From the IMG/VR virus record IMGVR_UViG_3300046478_000014, positions 1 to 20,726 of that record: a stretch of 20,726 nt of DNA; one strand, written 5' to 3'. Position numbers and translations under genes: made by a program. Below, one piece after another: positions 9,014-13,793 of this stretch. Origin of the DNA: a virus. How positions within the stretch are numbered: the stretch's first letter is position 1; every line of letters begins with the position of its first letter. The notes under the pieces were generated by a model. That model ran no database searches. It was not told where the DNA came from and saw nothing but the letters and a program-made list of their open reading frames with translations.

Positions 9014-9242
9014 CATTCTGTTACTTTCTTGACCCCTAATTCACACTAGCGGGCGGGGAAACTCTTCGGTATTCCCTCACTATCTTTCGAATAGTGTTCA
9101 GACTATTGCTTACTCTTTCGAGTCCATCTCGCTTAGTCGTTCACGCTGCAAGAGCATATTGCTCAGCTTGCGCCTCGTCACCATAACTTACGTCACAGGT
9201 TTCCGAGTCAATCAGAGATAGTTTAGCCAGACCTAACTTTTT
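9014..9242 (-). mobile_element. Group I intron 2 in the capsid gene (229 nt, no ORF)
   Basis: The minus strand carries the catalytic core signature GTGAACGACTAAGCGAG, then a CTCGAAAGAG hairpin (P8, GAAA loop) and CAATAGTCTGAAC. The GACTA and TAGTC pieces form P7. The 5' splice site is placed after CCAGGCT, whose seven bases pair with the guide GGTCTGG shortly downstream, with the required U-G pair at the cut. The 3' end (AGTAACAGAATG) matches the end of intron 1 (AGTAACAAAAGTG). The segment TCTGATTGACTCGGAAACC also matches intron 1, so the two are related. P6 is a short GAGC-AATAT-GCTC hairpin with no coding insert. An unspliced reading would add about 26 residues and stop at 9141, which is an intron artefact. 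Confidence 0.85.
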
Positions 9243-9852
9243 AGCCTGGGCGAATTTAACTGCCAAAGTCGCATTCTGCGCTAACATGCCCGAGTAGTAT
9301 GGGTCGCGATAAATCAGATTCATGGAATAACCATCCTGATTTATATGTGTGACCGCTTGCTTACCCATAACGGCATTGTAATACAAATCAGAACCATTAG
9401 CACTTGCACCTCTTGCTACAGGTGATTCAGAGCTAGTAAGTATCCTGATGTTATATATAGAGCCATATTCGCTAGGCAACGCTGAGGAATTATTAGGATA
9501 ATTCCACTGGTTGATAAAGCCGGAGCCAACCATACTATCAAAATCTGACTGCAATTCAGTACTTGACAACATAAAATAGGCCGATCGAATCGGACCTGTT
9601 CCAAAACGATCCATGCCCTCAATACCGCTCATAAACTTGTAAGCGTTGTTGGTATCTAAAGTAGTTGCCAACAAACTGAAGTCCGATACTCCATAATTTG
9701 TTGGATTATCAGCATTGCTACCCCCTCCGGCATTTATCTCCGACGCAGCCGAGATAATATAATCTCGTAAAATTAAATCTTCTGCTTGTCTCATTGCCAC
9801 AGCTAAACGCTCTGACACCCAAGCGAGGACCCCTTCCTGGTCTTGAAGTATA
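9243..9852 (-). CDS. Major capsid protein, exon 2 (central part)
   Basis: This exon supplies 203 codons plus one base that completes a GTT valine started in exon 1. The joined sequence reads IINEQV-ILQDQEGVLAWVSERLAVAMRQ, the conserved helix entry of N4-gp56/P22-coat-like capsid proteins (typically NEQV.LQ.QDPVL..). Downstream come AEDLILRDYIISAASEINAGG, a central domain, and a C-terminal AVTHINQDGYSMNLIYRDPYYSGMLAQNATLAVKFAQA. A GTG at 9818 would give a 225-residue standalone ORF to 9141. It is not the real start: coding signal continues upstream of it to the splice site, and its last 26 codons belong to intron 2. There is no ribosome binding site at that GTG. Confidence 0.85.
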
Positions 9853-10622
9853 CACTTTTGTTACTCCACATTATAATGTGTGGGCATATCATTTCTGTAT
9901 GCCTCTGCAATTTTATTTATAGTTGCAGATCAGACTATCGCTTCACCTTTCGGTGTCCACTCGCCTTAGTCGTTCAGGCTGTACATTTAATTATTAATCT
10001 TGTAGAATTACATCCACATCTAACAAAGGAATAAAGATGTCGAAGAGTAAATATACAAGAATTGATTACACAGTGAGCCAAATAGCATATCTTGCAGGCA
10101 TTATTGATGGTGAAGGAACTTTGTTTATCGGAAATTATGGAAATAAAGATAAAATCCGAGGAACTGGTTTTTTCCAAACCATTATATCCGTCACTACTAC
10201 TGATGAATGCCTTATAGATTGGCTTTACAATAATTTTGGTGGTTGGAAAAGCGAATACACGCCTAAACAACGCGCTAAAAATTGCAAAGGACCTGTCTAT
10301 AGTTGGAAATGTACCGGTGATAGGTTGACCCATCTTTGCGAACTCATGATTCCTTATCTTGTCATTAAAAAAGAACAAGCCATGATTCTTTTGAAGATGC
10401 GAAGCACTTACTTTTGTTCCGAATATCAGCCGGGAAAACAAGGAGTGCAGAGAATCTCTGAAGATATCATTAATGAACGTTTGAGTTTGATGGACCAACT
10501 TAAAAAACTTCACTGTAGAAACCACACTTTTAATAAGTAAACACTTGCCCCTTGTTGCCCTCTTGGTAATGAGGGGTTCCAAGTCAATTAGAGCAGATTT
10601 ATAGCAGGCTAAACTTCTGTCC
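9853..10622 (-). mobile_element. Group I intron 1 in the capsid gene (770 nt), carrying an antisense homing endonuclease
   Basis: The 5' exon end AGCAGGT pairs over seven bases with the guide GCCTGCT about 10 bases into the intron, with a U-G pair at the cut. The core contains GCCTGAACGACTAAGGCGAG, a CACC-GAAA-GGTG hairpin (P8) and GCGATAGTCTGATC, so P7 is GACTA/TAGTC. Three further hairpins follow (CTGCAA/TTGCAG, GGCATA/TATGCC, CCACA/TGTGG), and the intron ends AGTAACAAAAGTG. Joining 10623 to 9852 restores the frame exactly. The stretch between the two core halves holds a plus-strand LAGLIDADG gene. Complementary TTATTAA and TTAATAA flank it, so it probably occupies the loop of P6. Confidence 0.88.
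10037..10540 (+). CDS. LAGLIDADG homing endonuclease inside group I intron 1
   Basis: 167 residues from ATG 10037 with AAAGGA seven bases upstream. The motif QIAYLAGIIDGEGTLFIG (residues 15-32) is a clear LAGLIDADG signature, with Asp24 as the expected metal-binding acid. Only one such motif is present and the length is short, so it should act as a homodimer. Enzymes of this family cut intronless alleles of the host gene, and the intron is then copied in during repair. The gene lies on the plus strand, opposite to both intron and capsid gene, so it cannot be translated from the capsid transcript and needs its own antisense promoter. The stop codon region overlaps the inferred P6 stem. The coding sequence looks intact, with no frameshift or internal stop. 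Confidence 0.93.
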   Translation: MSKSKYTRIDYTVSQIAYLAGIIDGEGTLFIGNYGNKDKIRGTGFFQTIISVTTTDECLIDWLYNNFGGWKSEYTPKQRAKNCKGPVYSWKCTGDRLTHLCELMIPYLVIKKEQAMILLKMRSTYFCSEYQPGKQGVQRISEDIINERLSLMDQLKKLHCRNHTFNK

Positions 10623-10944
10623 ACCTGCTCATTGATTATGCAACCAGTCTTTCATAATCAATATTTTCGGCACTGGAACCACCGAAAAACGCCATCTGCG
10701 CATCTATGATATCACGTTGTGGTACCTGTGCAGGCGGGTCTATGCCTGAATTTCCAAGTTGTATAGTTGGAGGCTGTAAAGCTCTTGGTCGCATAAATCT
10801 GCATGTAGTACCGCCGTTTGCAGGCATACTAACCTTGTCGCAGATAGTAATATAATTCATGGTCGGGGTAGGTACATAAAGCATTGCAGGTGCTAGTGAC
10901 TGCAATATTAATGGCCCCAAATTCCCCGTAGTCGTAATAGACAT
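10623..10944 (-). CDS. Major capsid protein, exon 1 (N-terminus; whole gene spans 10944 to 8945)
   Basis: The main head shell protein. Translation starts at ATG 10944 after AAAGG. The N-terminus (MSITTTGNLGPLILQSLAP, then MPANGGTTCRFMRPRALQPP) matches the N4-gp56/P22-coat-like pattern in which a K/N-rich turn leads to a CRFMRPRAL-type strand. It continues VPQRDIIDAQMAFFG. In relatives this is followed directly by a short TGV-type turn and INEQV. Here TGCIINEQV is present just before the 5' splice site, but it is 32 nt late and out of frame. Read straight through, the frame stops at 10636. Skipping the 32 nt gives 97 codons in exon 1 and about 322 residues in all three exons, a normal size for the family. 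Sequencing error, ribosomal bypass and frameshift remain possible. A sigma-70-like promoter lies about 140 bp upstream. Confidence 0.85.
10631..10688 (-). other. Two adjacent hairpins around a 32-nt out-of-frame insert in capsid exon 1
   Basis: Hairpin A has a perfect 7-bp stem, TTTTCGG/CCGAAAA (10688-10664, 11-nt loop). Hairpin B has a perfect 10-bp stem, ATTGATTATG/CATAATCAAT (10662-10631, 12-nt loop). One base separates them. Loop A contains CCAGT and loop B contains ACTGG, which are exact complements. The insert (10680-10649) starts inside loop A and ends inside loop B. Its rightmost part, read on the plus strand, is TTTTCGGCACTGG, equal to the expected uninterrupted exon (Phe-Gly-Thr-Gly). 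Function is unknown. Confidence 0.75.
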
Positions 10945-13696: not shown

Positions 13697-13793
13697 TGCG
13701 GATGGTAGGATTTGAACCTACGCCCTCTTAAGCTTTTACCCTAAGAAGACATATCTTTAAAAAGATATTGCAAAATCTGTATGCCACATCCGC
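13697..13793 (-). tRNA. tRNA-like gene, class II, unusual (97 nt, anticodon unclear)
   Basis: The acceptor stem GCGGATG/CATCCGC is a perfect 7 bp with an A discriminator. The T arm is GTAGG-TTCAAAT-CCTAC, as in normal tRNA. The D arm is short (GCA/TGC, 9-nt loop TACAGATTT) and lacks the usual GG pair. The anticodon arm, ATATC-TTTTTAAA-GATAT, has an eight-base loop, so the triplet could be read TTT, TTA or TAA. The variable arm is very long: 29 nt with a 9-bp stem GTCTTCTTA/TAAGAGGGC. No CCA is encoded. The layout fits a Leu-type tRNA best, but it may be degenerate. It lies in the 134-bp gap between the 74-aa and 55-aa genes. Confidence 0.65.

What the first reader, a model, noticed from the sequence alone, without database searches (positions are those of the whole stretch)
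10631..10688. A 32-nt out-of-frame insert in the capsid gene, built from inverted copies of its own flanks
Seen directly: exon 1 reads MAFFG, then 32 nt, then TGCIINEQV in the -1 frame. Relatives I know have FYG plus a TGV-like turn and INEQV with nothing between. Without a remedy the gene stops at 10636. The insert (10680-10649) creates two adjacent perfect hairpins (7 and 10 bp) whose loops carry complementary CCAGT/ACTGG. Each edge of the insert lies in one loop, so loop kissing would bring the edges together. One inverted piece, TTTTCGGCACTGG, equals the uninterrupted exon (Phe-Gly-Thr-Gly). A GGT GGT before and a GGT after it are matched codons, as at known ribosomal bypass sites. Possible explanations: a translational bypass element, a programmed -1 shift in GAAAG, a new RNA-level excision element, or a template-switch mutation or amplification artefact.
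Basis: partly seen in the sequence, partly recalled or inferred. Interest (0 to 1): 0.9.

Follow-up and report, generated by a model that had tools for sequence, protein, structure and literature searches.

The report
Tiny ribozyme-less introns paired with ribozymes
The 32-letter insert in this phage's shell-protein gene looks like a miniature intron that has lost its own cutting machinery and is probably removed by a complete self-splicing intron just downstream, while carrying a built-in "destroy me" tag for protein made before it is removed; the same two-part arrangement recurs in many related phages and in a second gene.

Summary
The insert (10680-10649, minus strand) is real and is not damage. 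In relatives I found 61 distinct coreless introns at four capsid sites, and two more in the portal gene. Guide and exons covary; one P10 position shows all four Watson-Crick pairs. Every mini is directly followed, within about 170 exonic nt, by a full-size group I intron; none stands alone. Some coreless introns carry a LAGLIDADG endonuclease gene but still no core. Translation into a mini ends in an ssrA-like tag (A* in 58/61). Unpaired full introns carry such tags too; full introns behind a mini mostly do not (A* 66/85 against 6/61). Best explanation: the downstream ribozyme core removes the mini, and the mini is a removable stop codon plus degron that keeps ribosomes off the ribozyme. Group I-type RNA excision is strongly supported by sequence; partner-core dependence and excision order are inferred. 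No transcript data were available.

The parts
10681..10944 (-). Capsid (major head protein) exon 1, ending ...TTTTTCGGT
   Evidence: Spliced gene model; the relatives' capsid protein matches PHROG 1357, major head protein
10649..10680 (-). Coreless mini-intron, 32 nt, 5' site after U, last base G
   Evidence: 60 other distinct coreless introns in relatives; no core match
10681..10688 (-). P1 5' strand in exon 1 (TTTTCGGU)
   Evidence: Pairs with GCCGAAAA, 8 bp, U.G at the 5' splice site (conserved 61/61)
10664..10671 (-). Guide part pairing with the 5' exon (P1', GCCGAAAA)
10672..10676 (-). Guide part pairing with the 3' exon (P10', CCAGU)
   Evidence: position 3 shows all four Watson-Crick pairs in relatives
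10644..10648 (-). P10 partner at the start of exon 2 (ACUGG)
10653..10663 (-). 5' strand of the 3' clamp hairpin Px (TATTGATTATG)
10630..10640 (-). 3' strand of Px in exon 2 (CATAATCAATG)
10623..10648 (-). Exon 2 (TGCIINEQV); in the shifted frame it encodes ...LVA-stop (stop codon 10638-10636)
9853..10622 (-). Partner: full-size group I-like intron, 770 nt, no AA-stop tag (frame open for 216 codons)
   Evidence: core-model matches at 10614-10541 and 9984-9858; tags
10037..10540 (+). ORF with a LAGLIDADG-like motif (LAGIIDGEG), antisense to the capsid gene inside the partner intron
   Evidence: motif seen by eye, no Pfam match
9243..9852 (-). Capsid exon 3
9014..9242 (-). Unpaired full group I-like intron, 229 nt, in-frame tag ...AEQYALAA-stop
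   Evidence: core-model E 2e-40

Best explanation
The insert is a coreless mini-intron removed from the mRNA by group I-type transesterification. The mini supplies only the substrate: a guide that pairs with the end of exon 1 (P1, with the U.G pair that marks the 5' site) and with the start of exon 2 (P10), a final G, and a hairpin (Px) with exon 2 that holds the 3' site. The ribozyme core is supplied by the full-size group I intron that always lies just downstream. Until the mini is removed, ribosomes stop at it or a few codons past it, add an ssrA-like tag (here ...ERLVA) that would send the truncated capsid to proteolysis, and never reach the ribozyme. Supported directly by sequence: group I splice-site signals, covariation, absence of a core, strict mini-then-full order, tag bias. 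Inferred: that the partner core catalyses excision, that the full intron leaves first or together with the mini, that the tag is a working degron.
For: (1) 61/61 distinct coreless introns have U.G at the 5' site with P10 contiguous to P1 in nearly all; swap and shuffle controls are clearly exceeded. (2) Covariation: P10 position 3 at site 88 uses A-U, C-G, U-A and G-C, 28/29 paired; P1 position 4 uses C-G and U-A, 29/29. (3) Splicing restores the relatives' protein exactly at capsid sites 88, 91, 104, 114 and portal sites 7 and 36. (4) No core by a nucleotide profile, even in the 325-987 nt coreless introns that carry an ORF. (5) In 99 intron-bearing capsid genes every mini is immediately followed by a full intron, also when two minis alternate m-F-m-F; the one apparent exception is a truncated locus whose contig continues as m-F in another locus. 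In loci fetched without regard to introns: 10/10 with a mini have a nearby full intron against 6/64 without, p = 1.1e-8. (6) In-frame AA-stop: minis 49/61, unpaired full introns 63/85, paired full introns 5/61, other frames 2/414; A-stop unpaired against paired p = 4.5e-17. Same-site contrast at 144: six unpaired all end AA, two paired do not. (7) Minis without their own stop have exon-2 codons that spell xAA-stop or xVA-stop out of frame in 17/17, against 2/78 genes without a mini. (8) Some coreless introns hold the LAGLIDADG gene while the partner is a bare core of about 200 nt. (9) Paired cores are not one clade, so pairing is not one frozen hitch-hiking event.
Against: No cDNA, reads or splicing assay were available; excision is inferred. 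No specific contact between mini and partner core was found. Proximity could partly reflect co-inheritance by homing. The full-full pair of L082 (sites 88 and 97) also lacks a tag in the second intron, so tag loss may follow from lying close behind any tagged intron. A few paired full introns keep a tag (L058, L106, L134, L174, L197). Px is clear at sites 88 and 114, less regular at 104 and not seen at 91. L089 and L102 have weak P10.
Confidence: 0.72

Rival explanations
1. The mini is excised by group I chemistry, but by any group I core present in the infected cell, in trans; its partner is near only because the two travel together by homing.
For: Homing co-converts flanking exons. Some coreless introns carry the endonuclease gene. 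The genomes hold several group I introns.
Against: Minis are always upstream of their own full intron, alternate m-F-m-F when two occur, and are never alone although most capsids have no intron. Paired full introns have lost their tag, as expected if the two excisions are coupled.
Confidence: 0.14
2. The mini is a complete, very small self-splicing RNA with an unknown active site formed by P1, P10 and Px.
For: P1, P10 and Px bring both splice sites together; coreless introns as short as 29-30 nt exist.
Against: It would not need a partner, yet none is found without one. The tail between guide and 3' site is poorly conserved, leaving little room for a conserved active site. Group I marks (U.G, final G, P10) would be unexplained.
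Confidence: 0.06
3. The insert is a translational bypass element like that of T4 gene 60: ribosomes hop over it.
For: Hairpins, GGT codons on both sides, an insert that breaks the frame.
Against: A hop between GGT codons would drop residues that all relatives keep. At sites 91 and 104 no matching landing codon exists. Covariation follows splice-site pairing, and bypass does not explain the downstream group I intron.
Confidence: 0.04
4. The insert is a sequencing, amplification or template-switch artefact, or the gene is broken.
For: Inverted pieces of the flanks resemble template-switch products.
Against: The same mini occurs in contigs from different samples (identical in L039/L119, L111/L114, L144/L145; closely similar in L095/L104/L200), with compensatory changes and exact frame-restoring ends.
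Confidence: 0.02

Closest known systems
Phage group I introns (T4 td, nrdB, sunY; capsid introns of cluster J mycobacteriophages, PMC3706429)
   Same: 5' exon ends in U, U.G wobble, P1, P10, final G, LAGLIDADG-type endonuclease genes, in-frame stop soon after the 5' site (PMC3073962, PMC3984707)
   Different: The mini has no catalytic core (29-93 nt, or about 950 nt with only an endonuclease gene), depends on a neighbour by all indications, and has a Px clamp with the 3' exon
Engineered trans-acting group I ribozymes (for example PMC6155759; from my own knowledge also sunY cores acting on separate P1 duplexes)
   Same: A core can process a substrate that is not part of its own intron
   Different: Those are designed; here the substrate is a natural second intron that brings its own guide
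Split (trans-spliced) organellar group I introns
   Same: More than one piece is needed for splicing
   Different: There one intron is broken into pieces; here two separate introns each have both splice sites and one lacks the core
ssrA (tmRNA) degradation tag
   Same: C-terminal LAA or LVA before the stop; some introns end AEQYALAA
   Different: Encoded in the intron or in the shifted frame of the next exon, not added by tmRNA; degradation not shown
T4 gene 60 bypass and mitochondrial byp elements
   Same: Short structured insert that breaks a frame
   Different: No matched take-off and landing codons; splice-site pairing instead

Membership tests
Group I intron (for the mini) | 5' exon ends in U paired with G of an internal guide (P1) | tested here: met
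   61/61 distinct coreless introns; window mini 8 bp
Group I intron (for the mini) | P10 between guide and 3' exon | tested here: met
   Mean 5.3 bp contiguous with P1; covariation; weak in L089 and L102
Group I intron (for the mini) | Last intron base is G | tested here: met
   All minis; the gene model gave a small bonus to T and G at the edges, the guide pairing was scored independently
Group I intron (for the mini) | Conserved catalytic core P3-P9 with G-binding site | tested here: not met
   29-93 nt, or ORF only; no core-profile match even with filters off
Group I intron (for the mini) | Splicing activity | not testable with these tools
   No RNA data or assay
Group I intron (for the partner introns) | Core P3-P9 | tested here: inconclusive
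   Recurrent alignable core, both P3 strands and P7-like motifs seen by eye; only one of them matches Rfam RF00028, at 22.5 bits against a gathering score of 50
ssrA-like degron | C-terminal LAA or LVA just before the stop, in frame | tested here: met
   Minis 49/61 AA-stop and 58/61 A-stop; other frames 2/414 AA-stop
ssrA-like degron | Degradation by ClpXP or similar | not testable with these tools
   Host unknown, no experiment
Translational bypass element | Matched take-off and landing codons giving the relatives' protein | tested here: not met
   Sites 91 and 104 lack them; site 88 would lose residues

The most novel reading that the evidence does not exclude
A natural two-intron splicing relay with a fixed order: a group I intron first removes itself, then its ribozyme removes a second, coreless intron upstream that serves as a removable stop codon and degron, so that full-length capsid or portal is made only after the ribozyme intron is gone. 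The coreless intron can itself be the mobile partner, carrying the homing endonuclease gene.
Probability: 0.4. Interest if true: 0.97.

Novelty: categorically new. Interest (0 to 1): 0.92.

Why it matters
If right, these would be natural introns spliced by a ribozyme that belongs to another intron: for group I introns, a counterpart of non-autonomous mobile elements and a conceivable model of how introns lose their catalytic core and come to rely on shared machinery. It would also show that bacterial-virus introns encode quality-control degrons, solving the old problem of translation running into unspliced introns. Minis of 30 nt are invisible to gene finders and to Rfam models, so 'frameshifted' phage genes elsewhere may hide more. 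Every step can be tested with a small minigene in a laboratory strain or in vitro.

Tried and rejected
Bypass, -1 frameshift and artefact readings (see rivals). Rfam at gathering threshold found no group I intron in the window; at a permissive threshold one weak match in L053, so I built a profile from the short full introns. GenBank phages: the capsid N-terminus had no match, the 242-nt paired intron none, and the 229-nt intron only weak partial ones, so no cultured phage with a known host was found. Genome records gave six loci in metagenome bins of unrelated phyla, so the host stays unknown. By eye I compared paired and unpaired cores for a distinguishing element; P3 differs in places but nothing is consistent. 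A scan of the first 119 loci plus the window for the P1/P10 pattern with an open spliced frame gave known capsid minis and chance matches; the portal minis came from looking upstream of core matches outside the capsid. Literature searches found no coreless group I-type introns and no intron-encoded ssrA-like tags; the library lacks subscription papers and bioRxiv preprints, so this is weak evidence of novelty.

Full report
What is there. The window is a 20.7 kb virus record with phage head genes: terminase and P22-type portal and a capsid gene whose intronless relatives match PHROG 1357, major head protein. On the minus strand the capsid reading frame runs into a 32-nt insert at 10680-10649 and stops at 10636. 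A gene model aligned to an intact relative places three introns: 32 nt (10680-10649), 770 nt (10622-9853) and 229 nt (9242-9014), each after a U and ending in G, and joins the exons into a normal capsid protein.

The insert as an intron. That is the P1 and P10 arrangement of group I introns (established knowledge of that family). The remaining part, UAUUGAUUAUG, pairs with exon 2 further down (Px).

Relatives. 80 viral contigs with the same capsid mostly lack any insert, but several have one at this codon or nearby. Pattern scans for a G directly before the downstream exon added more. Gene models gave, after removing duplicates, 61 coreless introns: 30 at residue 88, 23 at 104, 5 at 91, 3 at 114. 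All 61 have the U.G pair. P1 plus P10 average 12.8 bp, against 5.0 for shuffled inserts and 10.8 (maximum 11.3 of 300) for inserts swapped within a site. Covariation is direct: P10 position 3 at site 88 occurs as A-U, C-G, U-A and G-C, and P1 position 4 as C-G and U-A. Px at site 88 averages 9.1 bp against at most 8.1 in swaps.

No core, and a partner. A nucleotide profile built from short full introns finds the core in the full introns but in none of the coreless ones, even with filters off. Twelve coreless introns at site 104 are 325-987 nt long; those of about 950 nt that I read carry an ORF of about 290 codons between the 5' site and the guide, and the two tested are LAGLIDADG endonucleases. 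Over 99 intron-bearing capsid genes the order is always mini then full intron, including m-F-m-F. The only lone mini, L109, sits at the end of its locus; another locus of the same contig continues with the full intron and a second pair. In the 80 loci fetched by exon similarity alone, 10/10 mini-bearing genes and 6/64 others have a full intron between residues 85 and 150, p = 1.1e-8. The pairs occur in a second gene: portal minis of 31 nt (L151) and 39 nt (L098/L109) are followed by full introns of 203 and 215 nt. Paired cores do not form one clade.

The tag. Reading from the upstream exon into each intron, the peptide ends in AA just before the stop in 49/61 minis and 63/85 unpaired full introns but in 5/61 full introns that follow a mini; in the other two frames only 2 of 414 do. 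At residue 144 the six unpaired introns end AA and the two paired ones do not. Unpaired introns very early in the gene also tend to stop at once without a tag. In minis without an internal stop, exon 2 itself spells LAA-stop, LVA-stop or similar in the shifted frame in 17/17, against 2/78 genes without a mini, so synonymous codons of a capsid exon serve this purpose. LAA and LVA endings are those of ssrA-type tags (own knowledge). Stop codons that protect phage introns from ribosomes are known (PMC3073962; PMC3984707); coding a proteolysis tag there is, as far as I could find, not described.

Mechanism and what is inferred. The simplest account of the strict pairing is that the partner's core acts on the mini's own P1/P10 substrate. 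The paired full introns can be open for up to 226 codons without a tag, which suggests that ribosomes do not meet them unspliced, and hence that the full intron leaves before or together with the mini. This ordering argument is indirect: one full-full pair (L082) also lacks a tag in the second intron, so closeness to any tagged upstream intron may suffice. Whether the partner acts before release, after release, in cis or in trans is open.

Limits. Everything is from DNA. The gene model rewarded T and G at intron edges slightly and introns without them were dropped as artefacts; the guide pairing was scored separately. Sequences are related, so counts are not independent, but four capsid sites and two portal sites are separate insertions. 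The host is unknown. Literature coverage excludes subscription papers and preprints.

Noticed in passing
L151 (portal, residues 7 and 25) and L098/L109 (portal, residues 36 and 50): Mini-plus-full intron pairs in the portal gene, outside the capsid gene of the finding.
   Followed up: yes
L161 (minus strand) and L140, portal codon ~36: 48- and 53-nt inserts made of one long perfect hairpin with an A-rich tail break the portal frame; no U/G splice rule and no group I core follows. A different element at the site where L098 has a mini.
   Followed up: partly
L131, L151, L153, L154, L158, L162, L172, L174, L196 site 104: Introns of about 950 nt without a ribozyme core; those read carry a LAGLIDADG endonuclease ORF, and the partner introns are bare cores of about 196-223 nt.
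   Followed up: yes
Capsid genes of L097, L134, L090 and others: Up to six introns in one capsid gene of about 322 codons.
   Followed up: partly
window 9014-9242 (-): The third capsid intron encodes ...YGDEAQAEQYALAA-stop in frame, close to the E. coli ssrA tag ending.
   Followed up: yes
window 10037-10540 (+) and 9974-10624 (-): A LAGLIDADG-like ORF lies antisense to the capsid gene inside the 770-nt intron, while the sense frame stays open for 216 codons.
   Followed up: partly
window 13697-13793 (-): tRNA match by Rfam (41.7 bits) with a long variable region; ARAGORN does not report it.
   Followed up: no
L082 site 88: A full 712-nt group I-like intron with a tag sits at the codon where others have a mini, followed 9 codons later by an untagged full intron; a possible ancestral stage.
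   Followed up: no
L195-L200: Capsid relatives lie in metagenome bins labelled Nitrospiraceae, Bacteroidales, Chlamydiia, Patescibacteria, Peregrinibacteria and Pseudomonadota, so the binning is not informative on the host.
   Followed up: no
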